Below are positions 6,597 through 16,538 of a stretch of DNA of 20,748 nucleotides, in pieces (positions within the stretch are counted from its first letter, which is position 1; each line of letters starts with the position of its first letter). The DNA is taken from the NCBI GenBank assembly GCA_024278215.1, contig JAJRTR010000116.1, positions 1-20,748 of the forward strand. Direction: 5' to 3'. This stretch comes from a bacterium. Its GTDB lineage: Bacteria; UBP15; UBA6099; JAJRTR01. The position numbers were made by a program, and so were the translations under genes. Below the pieces are notes generated by a model, which saw only the letters and a list, made by a program, of their open reading frames with translations, searched no databases and was not told the origin of the DNA.

Positions 6597-7940
6597 ATGA
6601 AAGGGACACTTTTTAAGAGTTCTGTTTTACCCCTGAAAACAGGCAAGCTGGACCGTTTGCCGATGACCGAAGTCCCGGCGCCGCGCGAGGCGATAGTTTT
6701 TATGCGTCAGCACTCGGGCGAAGTCTGCAAACCGGTTGTCGAGGCAGGCGACAGGGTCCTGTTGGGACAGGTTGTGGGTACTGCGCAGGATCAGCAGGGT
6801 GCGGATGTTCATTCACCAGTTTCCGGGGAAGTTACGCTCGTCGCGCCCCTGGAGGACCCTTACGGCGGTTTCACACTTGCGGCTATGATCGTGTCGGACG
6901 GCAAAGACGAGGCCGCGGAAGCAATGGAGCCGATGGCGGATTTCAACAACATGCCCCCTACACGAATGTTCGAAAGACTGCGGAGGGCGGGAGTCACTAC
7001 CTACGATCTCGAGCCCACACCGCTCTCGGCGGCGATATGTCCGGTAGATACGGCTTCCGACCTGCCCACGGGCATTGCCGAAAGCACGACGGAGTTGCCG
7101 GCTCTTGATACTGTTATTGTCAATACTGTAGATGAAGAACCTCTCACAGTCATCAACCAGCGGCTTTTTATAGATAACCGCGACAGAGCGGCGGAGGGTA
7201 TCGCCCTGATGAAACGTCTCACGGGCGCGCCTCGCGTAATATTCGCAGTACGCAAATCGCACGAGAAGATCGCGGTCAAAGCCCTCGGTCCAGATTCCGG
7301 CGCGGAGATCAAAGTCGTTCCTGTCTCTTATCCGGGAACACTGCCGATAGTGATGATAAACGCCCTTACATCAAGGACAATCCCGCCCGGCGGAACAGCC
7401 CGGGACGCGGGTGTGCTGCACATTTCATTCGAGATCATGCTGGACGCGCTTGAAGCGATAACGAAGGGCAGCGCGAATATTTATGAGATGCTCACAGTGA
7501 GCGGCGGCGCGGTGAACCCGCCGAAGAATCTCAAGGTACGCATCGGCACGCCCCTGCGGGCCGTGTTGAGATTTGTCGGATGCAGGGAGGCGGGCATAGA
7601 AAAGCTTGTGCTCGGCGGCCCCATGCGCGGCAAAGCGCAATTCTCTCTTGACATGCCCGTCGTCAAAGGGGTAAACACGATTCTTGCGCTCACGGAGAGC
7701 GAAGTCGCGGAAGTGAAAGAGACCTCGTGCATAAACTGCGGCGATTGCGTGGATATATGCCCCGCAAACCTGCAACCGAATCTCTTGAGTCGCTCGTGTG
7801 AATTTTTCAAATACGACAACCCGCAATTTCAGAAGGAATTGCGAGCGTGTATCGAATGCGGACTCTGTGGCTATGTTTGCCCGTCGCACCGGCCGATGAT
7901 GCAGTATTTCCTGAATGCAAAGCATCATCTCGGCATGTAG
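6597..7940 (+). CDS. rnfC: Rnf complex subunit RnfC, NADH/FMN site degenerate
   Basis: A 447-residue peripheral subunit of the ion-translocating Rnf complex. The RnfC barrel-sandwich N terminus is present (QHSGEVCKPVVEAGDRV, then VHSPVSGEV), as are the SLBB-like region and two 4Fe-4S sites: C378, C381, C384, C388 and C418, C421, C424, C428. In standard RnfC a glycine-rich loop of the form GLGGAGFPT and an ECEPY motif bind NADH and FMN. Here residues 131-147 read AGVTTYDLEPTPLSAAI and residues 176-185 read NTVDEEPLTV. The later YPSGG- and QNVGT-type stretches are also changed (YPGTLP, HISFE). The Fe-S wiring looks intact but the nucleotide site looks lost. It is the first gene of the C-D-G-E-A-B operon, with no strong ribosome-binding site. 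Confidence 0.93.
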   Translation: MKGTLFKSSVLPLKTGKLDRLPMTEVPAPREAIVFMRQHSGEVCKPVVEAGDRVLLGQVVGTAQDQQGADVHSPVSGEVTLVAPLEDPYGGFTLAAMIVSDGKDEAAEAMEPMADFNNMPPTRMFERLRRAGVTTYDLEPTPLSAAICPVDTASDLPTGIAESTTELPALDTVIVNTVDEEPLTVINQRLFIDNRDRAAEGIALMKRLTGAPRVIFAVRKSHEKIAVKALGPDSGAEIKVVPVSYPGTLPIVMINALTSRTIPPGGTARDAGVLHISFEIMLDALEAITKGSANIYEMLTVSGGAVNPPKNLKVRIGTPLRAVLRFVGCREAGIEKLVLGGPMRGKAQFSLDMPVVKGVNTILALTESEVAEVKETSCINCGDCVDICPANLQPNLLSRSCEFFKYDNPQFQKELRACIECGLCGYVCPSHRPMMQYFLNAKHHLGM

Positions 7941-8017
7941 ATATTGGTGTGACGCGCACATGGTTTTTAGTCTCGCAGGTGGCTCCAAAGGAATAAAAAA
8001 CAGGAGATTTTCTTAAG

Positions 8018-9001
8018 ATGATTAAGCCGTCAGGCCTTACAGTAAGTGCAGCGCCGCATGTGCATTGCGGCAGTTCGGTTCAAGAGCGAATGACGTTGCA
8101 GATTCTGGCGCTGGTGCCGGCGACGCTGGTCGGAATATATTTTTTCGGCCTGCACGCGGCGATAGTGGTTCTACTTTCGATGGCTGCTGCTATGGTCAGC
8201 GAAATGGCGTTGCAGAAAGCGCTGAAAAGAGAAGTCTCGGTAGCGGACGGAAGCGCGGCGCTCACGGGCCTGATCTTTGCGCTGCTATTGCCGGCAAGCG
8301 CGCCGTGGTGGGCAGTGGTTCTGGGGTCGGCCTTTTGCATGATAATGGGCAAATGGGTTTTCGGAGGGCTGGGCTCGTATCCGTTCAACCCCGCGCTTGT
8401 GGGATACTTGATGGTCAAGATATCATGGCCTATCCTGCTTACGGAATGGCCTGCGCCGGCCCCGTTCGGGATAACGAACGCACTGCCGATTGAAACAGGC
8501 GCCGAGATACTTAAGAGATATGGTGTGACGATGGCCGAGCAATTCAGCATGATCAACGCGCTGCTGGGCAACCAGGCGGGCGGCATCGGCGCAGTCTGCG
8601 GCATCGCGCTGATTGCGGGGGGTGTTTTCCTCATTTCACGCAAAGTTTTTTCGTGGCACATTCCGGTAGCTTTCATCGCGGGTGTGCTCCTTGTCGGAGG
8701 CATCTTCCGCATCATGAATCCCGCGGAATATGCAAGCCCGTTCTTTCATCTTCTCTCGGGCACAACGCTTCTGGGAGTATTCTTTATAGCGCCGGAATAT
8801 ACGACAAGCCCCTGCACGATATGGGGCAAACTGCTCTACGGGTTCGGTTGCGGCGTGATGGTGATGATCATAAGGGTTTACGGCACATATCCGGACGGAG
8901 TGGTATTCGCAATACTGCTGATGAATCTTTTGACACCGATATTCGACCGTATAAGGCCGAAGGTGGTGGGAATAATGAAGGAGGCGCAGGCCGATGGGTG
9001 A
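8018..9001 (+). CDS. rnfD: Rnf complex membrane subunit RnfD
   Basis: A 327-residue polytopic membrane protein of the Rnf/NqrB family with about eight or nine hydrophobic segments. The N-terminal SAAPHVHCGSSVQERM and the GGLGSYPFNPALVGY segment match the family. Characterised RnfD carries FMN covalently on a threonine in an SGAT-type motif. Here the corresponding region (residues 150-163) reads FGITNALPIETGAE, with TNAL or TGAE where the motif is expected, so the attachment threonine seems absent. A CAGGAG site lies 5' of the ATG with rather long spacing. The 3' end overlaps rnfG by 8 bp. Confidence 0.95.
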   Translation: MIKPSGLTVSAAPHVHCGSSVQERMTLQILALVPATLVGIYFFGLHAAIVVLLSMAAAMVSEMALQKALKREVSVADGSAALTGLIFALLLPASAPWWAVVLGSAFCMIMGKWVFGGLGSYPFNPALVGYLMVKISWPILLTEWPAPAPFGITNALPIETGAEILKRYGVTMAEQFSMINALLGNQAGGIGAVCGIALIAGGVFLISRKVFSWHIPVAFIAGVLLVGGIFRIMNPAEYASPFFHLLSGTTLLGVFFIAPEYTTSPCTIWGKLLYGFGCGVMVMIIRVYGTYPDGVVFAILLMNLLTPIFDRIRPKVVGIMKEAQADG

Positions 9002-9566
9002 AATAATGAAGATGATGGTCGTCCTGACACTGATCAGCGTGGTGTCGGGCGTTGCCTTGGGCACGATGAACGAAGTAACCAGGGACCCCATCATACAGGC
9101 GGAGTTCAAGTTTGCCAAGGAACCGGCGCTTAAAGAGATTCTGCCGGAATATGACAACGACCTGGTTGCCGATAAGTTTGAAATTGTTTCCGGCGAAAAG
9201 ATCGTCACAGTGTATCCCGCGAAACAGAACGGTAAAGTGGTAGCGCTGGGATACGAAAGTTCAGCGAAGGGCGTCAACGGCGATATCAGGATAATGGTGG
9301 GAATCGACCTCGAGAAGAATGTGCTGCGTGGGATCAGGGTTGTGGCGCATTCGGAAACGCCCGGTCTCGGCGCGCGGATCACGGAAGCGGCATTCAGCAG
9401 GCAGTTCGACAATATACCGCTCGGCGCGCCTGTAAAGGTGAAACCCGACGGCGGGCAGGTCGACGCCATCTCCGGCGCCACTATCTCCTCGAGAGGCACA
9501 TGCGAAGCAGTCGAAGCAGCGTTCAAGTTCTTTGAAGAACACAAGGCCGAATTGTCAACAAAATAA
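8994..9566 (+). CDS. rnfG: Rnf complex flavoprotein subunit RnfG
   Basis: A 190-residue protein with one N-terminal membrane anchor (about residues 5-23) and an extracytoplasmic FMN-binding domain. DAISGATISSRG is the canonical flavin-transferase (ApbE-type) target, and Thr163 is the predicted covalent FMN site. HSETPGLGARI is another family signature. RnfG relays electrons between the membrane and the other side of the complex. It overlaps rnfD by 8 bp, which suggests translational coupling, with GGAGG about 10 bases before the chosen ATG. An alternative ATG lies four codons further in. No apbE gene is present in the window. Confidence 0.96.
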   Translation: MGEIMKMMVVLTLISVVSGVALGTMNEVTRDPIIQAEFKFAKEPALKEILPEYDNDLVADKFEIVSGEKIVTVYPAKQNGKVVALGYESSAKGVNGDIRIMVGIDLEKNVLRGIRVVAHSETPGLGARITEAAFSRQFDNIPLGAPVKVKPDGGQVDAISGATISSRGTCEAVEAAFKFFEEHKAELSTK

Positions 9567-9589
9567 TACAATAGGATAAGTGAACCGAT

Positions 9590-10201
9590 ATGAGCGTAGT
9601 AAAAGAATTTACAAAAGGATTCTGGCAGGAACTCCCGCCGTTCAGGCTGGTGCTCGGACTTTGTCCTACACTGGCGGTCACGAAGACGGCTTTCGCGGGA
9701 GCGGGCATGGGGCTGGCGACAACATTTGTGCTCGTCTGCTCCAATATTCTCATTTCAATGTTGAAAAACGTGATTCCCGCGAAGGTGAGAATCGCGTCGT
9801 TCATCGTGATCATCGCATCGTTTGTCGTCGTGGTGGAAATGCTTATGAAAGCTTACGCCTATCCACTCTCTCAGGTACTGGGGCTGTTTATTCCCCTGAT
9901 AGTGGTCAACTGTATAGTACTGGGCCGCGCGGAAGCGTTCGCATCCAAGAACAGCGTGATCGATTCCGCCGCCGACGGACTCGGCATCGGACTCGGTTAC
10001 TCTATGGCGCTTGCTTTGCTCGGCGCGATTCGCGAACTGTTCGGCGCCGGCACAATCCTGGGCGGCACTCCGATGGAGATGCTCGCGTTCGGCTCGTCAT
10101 TCAAACCTTTCAGCTTCATGGTGCAGGCACCCGGCGCGTTCATGTGCCTCGGTCTTATTCTCGGTTTTATCGGTTTTTTAAACAGAAGATACAACATCTA
10201 A
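9590..10201 (+). CDS. rnfE: Rnf complex membrane subunit RnfE
   Basis: A 203-residue integral membrane protein with about six hydrophobic helices, paralogous to RnfA. LGLCPTLAVT with C25 and IPLIVVNCIVLGRAEAFASK with C108 are fully conserved. In Rnf and Nqr structures these cysteines, with the matching pair in RnfA, hold a 2Fe-2S cluster in the middle of the membrane. The length is normal. It starts 23 bp after rnfG and is followed 16 bp later by rnfA. Unlike RnfC and RnfD, this subunit shows no loss of key residues. Confidence 0.97.
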   Translation: MSVVKEFTKGFWQELPPFRLVLGLCPTLAVTKTAFAGAGMGLATTFVLVCSNILISMLKNVIPAKVRIASFIVIIASFVVVVEMLMKAYAYPLSQVLGLFIPLIVVNCIVLGRAEAFASKNSVIDSAADGLGIGLGYSMALALLGAIRELFGAGTILGGTPMEMLAFGSSFKPFSFMVQAPGAFMCLGLILGFIGFLNRRYNI

Positions 10202-10217
10202 AAACGGGGAGATACAG

Positions 10218-10814
10218 ATGGAATACAACAGTCTGACGGATTACCTGCTGCTGATAGTTGCAGCCGTGTTTGTTAAAAACATATTGCTCGCGCAGTACCT
10301 CGGCAACTGCCCGTTCCTGGGAGTTTCCAAAAAAATGGAGACCGCGACCGGAATGGGCATGGCGGTTGTTTTCGTGCTCGTACTGGCAGCGGTCTTTACA
10401 TGGATGACCTACACTTACATCCTGGTTCCGCTGAAACTCGAATACATGAAAACGGTTACTTTTATTCTGGTGATAGCGGCGCTGGTACAGTTTGTGGAAA
10501 TGTTCATGAAAAAAAGTATGCCCGCACTCTACAAAGGACTCGGCGTCTTTCTGCCTCTCATCACAACAAACTGTGCGGTGCTCGGCGTCTGCCTGATAAA
10601 TATAGATAAAGAGTATTCAATAATGACGGCTACGGTTTTTTCATTCGCATCCGCAGTCGGTTTCGCACTGGCGCTGGCGCTTTTCGCGGGTCTGCGCGAA
10701 AGATTCGAAATCGCCGCGATACCGAAATCATTCGAAGGCACGGCAATCGGCCTGATAACCGCCGGCCTGATAGCGATGGCGTTCTTCGGATTCGCGGGAA
10801 TGGTTAATATTTGA
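10218..10814 (+). CDS. rnfA: Rnf complex membrane subunit RnfA
   Basis: A 198-residue integral membrane subunit with about six helices, the inverted-topology partner of RnfE. AQYLGNCPFLGVS with C31 and LITTNCAVLGVCLIN with C119 are the conserved cysteine motifs that complete the intramembrane 2Fe-2S site. GGGGAG lies upstream of the ATG. It sits between rnfE and the rnfB fusion gene, in the standard place for a C-D-G-E-A-B operon. Nothing in it is unusual. Confidence 0.97.
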   Translation: MEYNSLTDYLLLIVAAVFVKNILLAQYLGNCPFLGVSKKMETATGMGMAVVFVLVLAAVFTWMTYTYILVPLKLEYMKTVTFILVIAALVQFVEMFMKKSMPALYKGLGVFLPLITTNCAVLGVCLINIDKEYSIMTATVFSFASAVGFALALALFAGLRERFEIAAIPKSFEGTAIGLITAGLIAMAFFGFAGMVNI

Positions 10815-10861
10815 AAATATACGTCAGGCCCTTATAAGAGTAATACGGAGGCATTTCAGAA

Positions 10862-12961
10862 ATGGGAATTACAGAGATCATCTATGCGACCGTCGCAATG
10901 CTGGGACTCGGGTTTGTCAGCGCGGCGGTACTGAGCCTGGCTTCGAAGGTATTCCAGATCGAAGAGGACCCGCGCATCGAGGCGGTCGAGGGCGCGCTGC
11001 TGGGCGCGAACTGCGGCGGTTGCGGATACGCCGGCTGCGCGGCGGCGGCCGAAGCGGTGGTCAGGGGCGATGCCGGAGTCGACGTTTGCACTGCCGGAGG
11101 AGCGACCATTGCGATAGGCGTCGCCACCGTCATGGGCATGGAAGTGAAGATTAAAGAACGTGAAATCGCCCAGCTCGGCTGTCGCAAAGGCTTTCGCATA
11201 GACCAGAAATATAAATACGAAGGAATCATGGACTGCCGCGCCGCTGTCGAGATGTGGGAAGGCGCACGCAACTGCGGGCGCGCCTGTATCGGGCTCGGCA
11301 CATGCGAAAAATCCTGCCCGTTCGGCGCAATTAAAATCGGCGAAAACGGACTGCCCGTAATCGACGCGAATATCTGCACCGGATGCGGTACATGTGTAAA
11401 GAACTGCCCCAAGGACGTGCTCGAACTCGTTTCCATGACGCAGCGGCTTCTGAGCTTCAACAAGCTCGACGACTGCCTCGCTCCCTGCCGACAGACATGC
11501 CCCGCTCAGATCGATATCCCAACATATATTGAACAGATAAAACACGGCCAGTATAAAGAAGCCCTGATGACGATTAAGGAAAGAAATCCGATGCCACTGA
11601 CCTGTGGTCGAGTGTGTCCGCATCCCTGCGAATATGTATGCAGGCGCGGCGCGGCGGACGAACCGGTGAATATCAATCACCTGAAACGTTACGCCGCGGA
11701 CATCGAGTTGCGTTCGGGCGAGCATTACCCCATCGACTGCAACCCGGACACAGGCCACAAAGTGGCCATTATAGGCGGCGGCCCCGCCGGCCTAAGCGCG
11801 GCGTTCTTTCTGCGCAGGCTCGGCCACCAGGTGAAGATTTTCGAGATGATGCCCAAACTCGGCGGCATGACACGCTACGGCATCCCCGAATACAGGCTTC
11901 CTAAAGCCGTTCTCGACTTCGAGATCGACGGCACACTAGGCTTGGGCGTAGAGACCGAATGCAACGTGAAACTCGGCAGAGACTTCACGCTCCAGGACCT
12001 CAGAGCGCAGGGATTCGAAGCGATATTCCTCGCGATCGGCGCATGGAAAAGCAGCCCGATGAGGGTCGAAGGCGAAGACTGCGACGGCGCACTCGCAGGC
12101 ATCGAGTTCCTCGAAAAAGAAGGACTCAACGCGGACAACCCGATCGGCGACCGTGTCGCGATCATCGGCGGCGGAAACACTGCCATCGACGTGGCGAGAA
12201 CCGCACTCAGACTCGGCGCGAAAGAAGTAACGATTGTCTACAGGCGCACACGAAAAGAAATGCCGGCCGAATGGTACGAAATCGAAGAGGCGGAACACGA
12301 AGGCATTAAGTTCCACTTCCTCGCCGCACCGTCGAAAATCATTACAGATGAAAACGGACGATTCAAAGCACTCGAATATTTGAAGATGGAACTCGGCGAA
12401 CCGGATGCCAGCGGACGCCGCAGGCCCATCCCCATCGAAGGCTCCGAAACTATCATGGAACTCGACAATATCGTAGCCGCCATCGGCCAGAAACCCGACC
12501 TCGCGCCTTTCCCGGAAGACGAAATAGGTAAAGACATCGAACTGACACGCTGGCAAACGATTATAGGTGACGACCAGACACTACAGACGGCTGTTCCTTA
12601 TGTATTTACCGGAGGCGACTGTTTCACAGGCGCACTCACAGTGGTTTCCGCCATCGGCGCTGGGCGACGCGCAGCACGCTCGATCCACCTCTTCCTCGAC
12701 GAAGACGCGGAACTGACTCCACCGCCAAAACCACTCATAAAAAATATTCCTGAAAGCATGTTGCCCACCATCTACGGTGTTGTACGCAGACCTCGTGTTG
12801 AAATGCCAGAAATGGAACCGATGGTAAGAGTGAAAAGCTTCGATGAAGTGGCGCTCGGCCTGTCGGAAGAAGCGGCAAAATACGAGGCGTCCCGTTGCCT
12901 CCAGTGCGGCATACTCTGCTACAACCAGGATATTCACACCCCGGCAGAGATCGAAATCTGA
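10862..12961 (+). CDS. rnfB: RnfB fused to GltD/NfnB-like FAD oxidoreductase
   Basis: One uninterrupted 699-residue frame. Residues 1-190 are RnfB: a membrane anchor at 5-27, the four-Cys Fe-S domain (C51, C54, C59, C76) and two ferredoxin clusters (C138, C142, C148, C152 and C172, C175, C178, C182). Residues from about 200 form a GltD/NfnB-type module. Its N-terminal cluster cysteines are C205, C209, C213, C248, C252, C256 and C260. The FAD Rossmann motif VAIIGGGPAGLSAAFF starts at 301, the second nucleotide motif RVAIIGGGNTAIDVAR at 431 is followed by VYRRTRKEMPA, and the FAD-closing VFTGGDCFTGA starts at 581. The C-terminal RCLQCGILC adds three cysteines. Ordinary RnfB is about 200-330 residues. 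Paired arginines after the second Rossmann fold suggest NADP(H), as in GltD. GGAGG precedes the ATG. It is the last gene of the operon. Confidence 0.96.
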   Translation: MGITEIIYATVAMLGLGFVSAAVLSLASKVFQIEEDPRIEAVEGALLGANCGGCGYAGCAAAAEAVVRGDAGVDVCTAGGATIAIGVATVMGMEVKIKEREIAQLGCRKGFRIDQKYKYEGIMDCRAAVEMWEGARNCGRACIGLGTCEKSCPFGAIKIGENGLPVIDANICTGCGTCVKNCPKDVLELVSMTQRLLSFNKLDDCLAPCRQTCPAQIDIPTYIEQIKHGQYKEALMTIKERNPMPLTCGRVCPHPCEYVCRRGAADEPVNINHLKRYAADIELRSGEHYPIDCNPDTGHKVAIIGGGPAGLSAAFFLRRLGHQVKIFEMMPKLGGMTRYGIPEYRLPKAVLDFEIDGTLGLGVETECNVKLGRDFTLQDLRAQGFEAIFLAIGAWKSSPMRVEGEDCDGALAGIEFLEKEGLNADNPIGDRVAIIGGGNTAIDVARTALRLGAKEVTIVYRRTRKEMPAEWYEIEEAEHEGIKFHFLAAPSKIITDENGRFKALEYLKMELGEPDASGRRRPIPIEGSETIMELDNIVAAIGQKPDLAPFPEDEIGKDIELTRWQTIIGDDQTLQTAVPYVFTGGDCFTGALTVVSAIGAGRRAARSIHLFLDEDAELTPPPKPLIKNIPESMLPTIYGVVRRPRVEMPEMEPMVRVKSFDEVALGLSEEAAKYEASRCLQCGILCYNQDIHTPAEIEI

Positions 12962-13314: not shown

Positions 13315-13593
13315 GTATCTACGACTGAAATGCTACGCAGGATGGTAAAGAAATGCTGAAAAGAGATCGGTGAAAGCTGAAGCTTCCAGTTACAGACGTT
13401 TCCAATGTAGACCCTGGGAACGATGAAACTCTGTGTGCCGTGCTCAAACCGCAGACCGTGCGTGTGCCGTGCTCAAACCGTAGACCGTGCGTGTGCCGTG
13501 CTCAAACCGTAGACCGTGCGTGTGCCGTGCTCAAACCGCATTTGTTTGGGCACGAAAATGCGGCCTGTTTGGTTCCGGCTTTGCCGGGTTAGG
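13315..13593 (-). repeat. 192-bp dispersed repeat, right copy with expansion
   Basis: This is the reverse-oriented partner of 3755-3946. It is 279 bp long, equal to 192 plus exactly three 29-bp units. Outside the expansion the two copies differ by scattered substitutions and single-base indels. The outer boundaries (AGATAC at one end, CCTAACCCGG at the other) match, while the sequences beyond them do not. Confidence 0.8.
13433..13537 (+). repeat. 29-bp tandem repeat inside the right copy
   Basis: The 18-mer GTGTGCCGTGCTCAAACC starts at 13433, 13462, 13491 and 13520. The three 11-base linkers between copies are near identical (GCAGACCGTGC, then GTAGACCGTGC twice). The left copy of the parent repeat has a single unit, so this is a local expansion. 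The linkers are not unique spacers, so it is not a CRISPR array. Confidence 0.9.
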
Positions 13594-15992: not shown

Positions 15993-16442
15993 TTATTCCC
16001 CGGATTCTTTCACGATAATTATGATATCAGGTACGTAGTTCGAGTTTTTTTTCGCGCGTCTGTTTAATATGGGGTAGATGACGGCGACACTTGCCGCGAA
16101 AAACAGTATGCCGCTTATCAGTGTTGTGGAATCCTTGTTCAAACCCCGCAACGATGCGATGTGGTCGCCAACTGCGAGTCCGATGATCAGACACAGGATC
16201 GGCACCATATATATGAAGAACGAACTGGAGACGAATGTGCTGTCGGACAACTCGATTTTCACGTGGTCGCCTTCGCGCGCGCCGACGATATTATTGGCCT
16301 CTACGGATACTTCTTCGCCGGACCCGCCCAGCGTCTGGCACATCCCTTTCGAGCTGCAACCCGCGCACGCATCGTTCCGCACTGTTTTCACCAGCGCGCG
16401 TTTTCCCCGTATTTCCATCACAATACCGTCTTCTACCGGCAT
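15993..16442 (-). CDS. RseC/MucC-like membrane protein
   Basis: A 149-residue protein of the SoxR-reducing-system RseC family. A cytoplasmic beta-rich N-terminal part (VEDGIVMEIRGKRALVKTVR) carries a four-Cys cluster motif CAGCSSKGMC preceded by NDA. It is followed by VSVEANNIVGAREGDHVKIE and two hydrophobic helices at about residues 75-95 and 105-125. In E. coli, RseC works with the Rsx/Rnf complex in reducing SoxR, and relatives often accompany rnf genes. Here it is about 3 kb from the rnf operon, on the other strand. I chose the internal ATG at 16442 because the longer frame (from 16508) would translate through a hairpin repeat. It lies downstream of the aminotransferase gene on the same strand. 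Confidence 0.87.
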   Translation of the reverse strand: MPVEDGIVMEIRGKRALVKTVRNDACAGCSSKGMCQTLGGSGEEVSVEANNIVGAREGDHVKIELSDSTFVSSSFFIYMVPILCLIIGLAVGDHIASLRGLNKDSTTLISGILFFAASVAVIYPILNRRAKKNSNYVPDIIIIVKESGE

Positions 16443-16461
16443 CTGCCGCCGCCTTTCCCGT

Positions 16462-16484
16462 CCCGCATCGGTGAAATATGCGGA
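16462..16484. repeat. Hairpin repeat copy 4 (GTGAAATATGCGG family)
   Basis: CCGCAT (16463-16468) and ATGCGG (16478-16483) form a perfect 6-bp stem with a 9-base loop, the same architecture as copy 1. It sits in the 96-bp gap between the aminotransferase and RseC-like genes. Confidence 0.7.
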
Positions 16485-16538
16485 AGGACAAATCCATTCG
16501 CGCAACACTTTATTATTATTATAAGCATCTCCAGCAGC

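What the first reader, a model, noticed from the sequence alone, without database searches (positions are those of the whole stretch)
6597..12961. Candidate rewired Rnf complex with a relocated nucleotide site
Taken together, the operon shows site loss in RnfC, a gained GltD/NfnB-like module on RnfB, an apparently missing flavin site in RnfD, and full conservation of RnfG, RnfA and RnfE. The coordinated pattern is better explained by a functional variant than by decay. The VYRR motif in the added module suggests NADP(H), so the complex might couple ion transport to NADPH and ferredoxin, or take electrons from a different donor. NfnB-type FAD also raises the possibility of electron bifurcation.
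Basis: inference. Interest (0 to 1): 0.85.

Follow-up and report, generated by a model that had tools for sequence, protein, structure and literature searches.

The report
Rewired Rnf pump, Rnf2 type
This operon encodes a membrane ion pump of the Rnf family in which the NAD(P)H-binding part has moved from one end of the electron path to the other; this "Rnf2" layout was already reported in some sulfate-reducing bacteria, and here it proves to be one old clade, shared by unrelated bacteria, that travels with multiheme cytochromes, which suggests it passes electrons out of the cytoplasm instead of back to NAD+.

Summary
The window carries one intact rnfCDGEAB operon. RnfC lacks the FMN loop and NAD motif, RnfD lacks its flavinylated Thr, and RnfB (699 aa) ends in a GltD/NfnB/StnC-like NAD(P)H-FAD module. 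RnfG, A, E and all Fe-S ligands are kept. The pattern is not decay: fused RnfB occurs in 12 genomes of the set searched, all 10 with a readable RnfC lack both sites, 72 of 72 canonical loci keep the FMN loop, and the fused type is one clade (bootstrap 100). The window genome has an unlinked 24-heme homologue. Best reading: NAD(P)H and/or ferredoxin -> RnfB -> RnfA/E (ion pumping) -> RnfG FMN -> periplasmic cytochromes, probably reversible, without the RnfD-RnfC return limb. Bifurcation is unsupported. The layout is not new: it is the Desulfobacula toluolica-type "Rnf2" (PMC5109826, PMC11887813), whose function is untested. New here: a deep-branching lineage, phylum-level spread, RnfD flavin loss and the cytochrome association. 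No activity was measured.

The parts
6597..7940 (+). rnfC: RnfC fold and 2x[4Fe-4S] ligands kept; FMN loop GxGGAxFP and NAD motif xECEP lost (VDEEP instead)
8018..9001 (+). rnfD: NqrB/RnfD membrane subunit without the flavinylated Thr (S/T-x-A-T replaced)
8994..9566 (+). rnfG: FMN-bind subunit with SGAT flavinylation motif; best model RnfG_DVU2794 (D. vulgaris-type), over its cut-off
9590..10201 (+). rnfE: ion-pump membrane subunit, canonical
10218..10814 (+). rnfA: ion-pump membrane subunit, canonical
10862..11431 (+). rnfB, RnfB part (about residues 1-190): N-terminal membrane helix, FeS domain (C51, C54, C59, C76), Fer4 pair (C138-C182)
   Evidence: boundary approximate
11474..12961 (+). 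rnfB, fused GltD/NfnB/StnC-like NAD(P)H-FAD module (from residue 205): Fer4_20 clusters, FAD and NAD(P) Rossmann folds, C-terminal CxxCxxxC; replaces the distal Fer4 pair of canonical RnfB
15993..16508 (-). RseC/MucC-family gene 3 kb away; in relatives it lies between the rnf operon and the cytochrome gene (accessory, linkage conserved)

Best explanation
This is a one-way (not U-shaped) Rnf complex of the Rnf2 type. NAD(P)H is oxidised at the FAD of the GltD-like module fused to RnfB; reduced ferredoxin may also enter at RnfB. Electrons pass along the RnfB [4Fe-4S] clusters to the [2Fe-2S] cluster of RnfA/E, where ion pumping occurs, then to FMN on periplasmic RnfG, and leave to multiheme c-type cytochromes. 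The normal return limb (RnfD-FMN to RnfC-FMN/NAD) is disabled. Run backwards on the ion gradient, it could reduce NAD(P)+ or ferredoxin from the cytochrome pool. Shown: the anatomy, the co-inherited site losses, the monophyly, the cytochrome association. Inferred: cofactor content, electron path, direction, ion and NAD/NADP choice.
For: (1) Fused RnfB comes with loss of both RnfC motifs in 10 of 10 loci; 72 of 72 canonical RnfC keep the FMN loop. (2) The flavinylation site of RnfD is lost in 9 of 9 fused operons and kept as Thr in 27 and Ser in 1 of 28 aligned canonical ones. (3) RnfA/E, RnfG and all 23 shared RnfB cysteines are kept. (4) ORFs with >=4 CxxCH lie beside 10 of 12 fused loci and near 0 of 38 canonical loci (+/-9 kb; Fisher p 6e-9, or 7/8 vs 0/38, p 1.5e-7, counted by genus and leaving out a truncated contig). 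Within genomes holding both types: 4/4 vs 0/4. (5) In the window's order, homologues of this cytochrome occur in exactly the 6 genomes that have the fused operon, including a 24-heme one in the window genome; the seventh genome has neither. (6) Structural precedent: in A. woodii the pump is RnfA/E and RnfD serves only the return path (PMC11889175). M. acetivorans Rnf does not use NAD and is modelled RnfG -> cytochrome c (PMC4023990).
Against: In Desulfovibrio alaskensis the decaheme gene dhcA co-transcribed with rnf had almost no fitness phenotype although rnf did (PMC4215793); whether that Rnf is of the fused type was not tested here. RnfC keeps its Fe-S ligands in all ten loci, so RnfC probably still carries electrons, which the model does not explain. 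The window's own cytochrome gene is not linked to its operon. Canonical control genomes may simply have fewer cytochromes. The Desulfobacteraceae literature assumes a ferredoxin/NAD role for Rnf2 (PMC11887813).
Confidence: 0.5

Rival explanations
1. Polarity-flipped ferredoxin:NAD(P)+ oxidoreductase: the nucleotide site has moved to RnfB, and RnfC, stripped of FMN/NAD but with intact clusters, now exchanges electrons with ferredoxin or another cytoplasmic protein, the membrane path being used in reverse.
For: RnfC Fe-S ligands conserved in all ten variant loci; the RnfD N123/D249 riboflavin-site positions are partly kept; Desulfobacteraceae papers place Rnf2 between the ferredoxin, NAD and NADP pools.
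Against: The covalent RnfD-FMN that bridges RnfG and the riboflavin is lost in every variant, two variants lack that whole loop, and the cytochrome association is unexplained.
Confidence: 0.2
2. Nqr-like NAD(P)H:quinone pump: the fused module plays the part of NqrF and electrons end on (mena)quinone through RnfD.
For: Strong analogy: Nqr is proposed to have arisen by RnfC site loss plus recruitment of an NADH module joined to the RnfB helix (PMC4014512).
Against: NqrB needs its covalent FMN, which variant RnfD lacks; the cytochrome association is unexplained.
Confidence: 0.1
3. Electron bifurcation at the GltD-like FAD: NAD(P)H feeds ferredoxin (low-potential branch) and the RnfA/E-RnfG-cytochrome path (high-potential branch).
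For: NfnB-type FAD and two adjacent Fer4_20 clusters are conserved.
Against: No NfnA/HydB-like second flavin partner in the operon; in Stn the homologous FAD is non-bifurcating (PMC10482914).
Confidence: 0.08
4. Decaying or inactive operon.
For: Loss of several cofactor sites.
Against: Intact ORFs, 23 RnfB cysteines invariant at 49-67% identity, single clade with support 100 over several phylum-level lineages; a Tol2-type Rnf is expressed in D. multivorans (PMC5109826).
Confidence: 0.02

Closest known systems
Rnf2 / Desulfobacula toluolica Tol2-type Rnf (D. toluolica, D. multivorans, D. autotrophicum, Desulfobacteraceae core; PMC5109826, PMC11887813)
   Same: RnfB ~700 aa with NAD-binding sites, RnfC without NADH-oxidoreductase function, coexistence with a canonical Rnf1 in some genomes.
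   Different: The window lineage has no relative nearer than domain level in the sample outside its own order. RnfC here keeps recognisable Complex1_51K and weak SLBB matches, which are reported absent in Tol2. RnfD flavin loss and the cytochrome association were not found in the texts read. Tol2 sequences themselves could not be compared.
Canonical Rnf (A. woodii, C. tetanomorphum, A. vinelandii)
   Same: Six homologous subunits (in A. woodii also the same operon order), pump core RnfA/E and RnfG.
   Different: No FMN/NAD site in RnfC, no flavinylated Thr in RnfD, RnfB carries an NAD(P)H-FAD module instead of a distal Fer4 pair.
Methanosarcina acetivorans Rnf with MmcA
   Same: No NAD reaction at RnfC; electrons thought to leave from RnfG to a multiheme cytochrome c.
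   Different: Archaeal complex takes only ferredoxin and has no NAD(P)H module on RnfB (by literature; not aligned here).
Na+-NQR
   Same: NADH module at the input end, RnfC homologue (NqrA) without NAD/FMN site.
   Different: NqrF is unrelated to GltD; NqrA also lost its Fe-S ligands; NqrB keeps its FMN.
Two-subunit NQR/RNF-like systems (PMC8238504, PMC11334425)
   Same: Proposed one-way NAD(P)H -> extracytosolic flow; NqrB/RnfD-like subunit without the conserved Thr.
   Different: No RnfA/E pump, no RnfB or RnfC.
StnC / NfnABC NfnA / NfnB
   Same: Same GltD-type FAD-NAD(P)H fold with two N-terminal [4Fe-4S] clusters, joined to an Fe-S chain.
   Different: Soluble transhydrogenases; here joined to a membrane subunit.

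Membership tests
Rnf family | Six homologous subunits RnfABCDGE in one operon | tested here: met
   TIGR01945, 01946, 01947, 01948, 01943 and 01944 all over cut-off
Rnf family | Ferredoxin:NAD+ oxidoreductase activity with ion transport | not testable with these tools
   sequence only
Canonical Rnf (Rnf1) | RnfC FMN loop GxGGAxFP and NAD motif xECEP | tested here: not met
Canonical Rnf (Rnf1) | Flavinylated Thr in RnfD | tested here: not met
Canonical Rnf (Rnf1) | Flavinylation motif in RnfG | tested here: met
   (SGAT)
Rnf2 / Tol2 type | RnfB ~700 aa with nucleotide-binding domain | tested here: met
   definition from PMC5109826
Rnf2 / Tol2 type | RnfC unable to use NAD (NADH-oxidoreductase and SLBB domains lacking) | tested here: inconclusive
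   sites lost, but Complex1_51K still scores 44.8 bits and SLBB is only just below cut-off
Rnf2 / Tol2 type | Common descent with Desulfobacteraceae Rnf2 | not tested
   no named Desulfobacterota sequences reachable; indirect only: RnfG exceeds the RnfG_DVU2794 cut-off, and that D. vulgaris-based model ranks the nine fused-operon RnfG first in 386 genomes
NfnB / StnC GltD-type module | FAD and NAD(P) Rossmann motifs plus Fer4_20 cysteines | tested here: met
Electron-bifurcating Nfn | NfnA-type partner with second flavin | tested here: not met
   none in the operon or window; elsewhere in the genome not tested
Cytochrome-linked Rnf | Multiheme c cytochrome gene linked to the operon | tested here: not met
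   not in the window; linked in five other genomes of the order and in five genomes outside it, unlinked 24-heme homologue in G000

The most novel reading that the evidence does not exclude
Fused-RnfB operons form a separate, widely spread class of energy-conserving enzyme: a straight-through NAD(P)H (and ferredoxin):cytochrome c ion pump that lacks the RnfD-RnfC return path, reached in parallel with the evolution of Nqr. If Desulfovibrio Rnf belongs to it, this would explain why ferredoxin:NAD+ vesicle assays failed there (PMC4841214).
Probability: 0.4. Interest if true: 0.75.

Novelty: new member of a known kind. Interest (0 to 1): 0.5.

Why it matters
Rnf sets the energy yield of many anaerobes, and Rnf2 is reported as core to Desulfobacteraceae yet its reaction is untested. 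If electrons leave to periplasmic cytochromes, models that book Rnf2 as a ferredoxin:NAD+ oxidoreductase are wrong, and NAD(P)H oxidation gains a direct ion-pumping route to the periplasm or cell exterior. The clade is also a natural case of pump rewiring to set beside the proposed origin of Nqr.

Tried and rejected
AlphaFold model of fused RnfB: mean pLDDT 37, unusable. RnfC model: pLDDT 58, fold match only. The search for related loci in genome contigs with the single sequence missed the fused relatives and used the only scan. Searches of the plasmid collection found no fused RnfB and no Desulfovibrio Rnf among the listed hits. Searching the classes and one phylum of the fused genomes gave only two more members, because these taxa are tiny in the held set. 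Considered and rejected: decay; assembly chimera (same fusion in 12 genomes); second canonical Rnf in the window genome (genome about 95% complete); PF01512 hits on C56, C31 and C156 are not a second RnfC: the hit on C56, the only one read, is NuoF-like, and one search finds a single RnfC.

Full report
What is there. The window holds a complete operon in the order rnfC, D, G, E, A, B on the + strand. Pfam and NCBIfam assign every subunit. RnfB is 699 aa: its first ~190 residues are ordinary RnfB, and residues ~205-690 are a GltD-type NAD(P)H-FAD module whose nearest solved relatives are NfnABC NfnA and StnC. Compared with the 273-aa canonical RnfB of a related genome, the module takes the place of the distal Fer4 pair.

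Site losses. RnfC lacks the FMN loop (GxGGAxFP) and the NAD motif (xECEP, here VDEEP) but keeps both sets of cluster cysteines; RnfD lacks the flavinylated Thr; RnfG keeps SGAT. The A. woodii structure gives these positions meaning: electrons run RnfB -> RnfA/E [2Fe-2S] -> RnfG FMN -> RnfD FMN (T156) -> riboflavin -> RnfC -> NAD+, and ion pumping is assigned to RnfA/E (PMC11889175). The window has lost precisely the return limb and gained a nucleotide site at the entry.

Is it a pattern or an accident? Five of the six other held genomes of the order carry the same fused operon; the sixth (80% complete) has no Rnf that was found. A profile search of 386 genomes found four more, in distant lineages, and two more came from their classes. 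Each of the ten fused loci with a readable RnfC lacks both motifs; 72 canonical loci all keep the FMN loop. RnfD lost the flavinylation site in all nine fused operons examined. In an RnfA+E tree the nine variants are monophyletic with ultrafast bootstrap 100, and in an RnfC tree the eight variants with SH-like support 1.0. The trees contain no named Desulfobacterota. The distribution is patchy, which suggests horizontal transfer or repeated loss (inference).

The cytochrome link. Genes with 4 to 27 CxxCH motifs lie next to the fused operon in 10 of 12 loci; of the two exceptions one is the window and one is a contig that begins close to rnfB. None of 38 canonical loci has one within about 9 kb. 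The control may be unfair if canonical-Rnf genomes have few cytochromes, so the within-genome comparison matters: G001, G002, G225 and G204 hold both types, and only the fused type has the cytochrome, though two of those canonical contigs are short. Within the window's order, homologues of the L037 cytochrome occur in exactly the six genomes with fused Rnf; the window genome's copy, 24 CxxCH, lies on another contig (G000:C139). They belong to the cytochrome c7/c3 group.

Mechanism. The most economical reading is a one-way pump: NAD(P)H (and perhaps ferredoxin) -> RnfB -> RnfA/E -> RnfG -> cytochrome c. M. acetivorans gives a precedent for the exit (PMC4023990), and a similar exchange between the cytochrome pool and NAD(P)H or ferredoxin was already hypothesised for Desulfovibrio (PMC4287179). 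The entry resembles Nqr in logic, not in descent (PMC4014512). Every step of flow is inferred. Two facts do not fit easily: RnfC clusters are conserved, and dhcA mutants of D. alaskensis had almost no phenotype. Bifurcation is possible but unsupported: in Stn the homologous FAD is non-bifurcating and no second flavoprotein is in the operon. NADPH preference is not established by the YRR motif.

What is known. The anatomy was reported before: a ~700-aa RnfB with NAD-binding sites and an RnfC without NAD function in D. toluolica, with both types expressed in D. multivorans (PMC5109826), named Rnf2 and called core to Desulfobacteraceae (PMC11887813). [quoted passage not shown] that may be the same fusion, but I could not obtain those sequences, and PMC11887813 assigns Desulfovibrionaceae to Rnf1. 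D. alaskensis ferredoxin:NAD+ vesicle assays were unsuccessful (PMC4841214), which would fit if that Rnf is of this type. The RnfG model built on D. vulgaris DVU2794 ranks the nine variant RnfG above all others in 386 genomes, which hints at kinship and does not prove it.

Verdict. The cytochrome association, the RnfD loss and the breadth of the clade are the additions made here; the reaction itself remains a hypothesis.

Noticed in passing
window 13433-13540: Tandem array of a 29-bp unit, 3.7 copies, 97% matches, in the non-coding stretch downstream of rnfB.
   Followed up: no
window 15993-16508 (-); L037 10650-11147; L038 3586-4203: RseC/MucC-family gene near the operon; in relatives it sits between rnfB and the cytochrome gene. 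The title of PMC9124969 reports rseC as indispensable for autotrophy in C. ljungdahlii.
   Followed up: partly
L061 7029-8951 (G000:C139): 24-heme cytochrome of the window genome, next to ilvB/ilvH-like genes on another contig.
   Followed up: partly
L038 1292-3763: 27-CxxCH cytochrome whose N-terminus matches NapC/NirT (membrane anchor), unlike the lipoprotein-like one in L037.
   Followed up: partly
L062 4890-5861: Canonical RnfD with Ser in place of the flavinylated Thr (TSASPLA); RnfG of L037, L064 and L110 likewise carry GAS instead of GAT.
   Followed up: no
L108 3960-8293 and L113 154-4717: Fused rnf operon followed by a 16-heme cytochrome and a membrane protein with 5 CxxCH; L113 also has a ferredoxin-type subunit between, resembling an Hmc-like redox complex.
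   Followed up: no
L110 517-3615: Periplasmic-type [NiFe] hydrogenase genes directly beside a fused rnf operon, a possible electron partner of its cytochromes.
   Followed up: no
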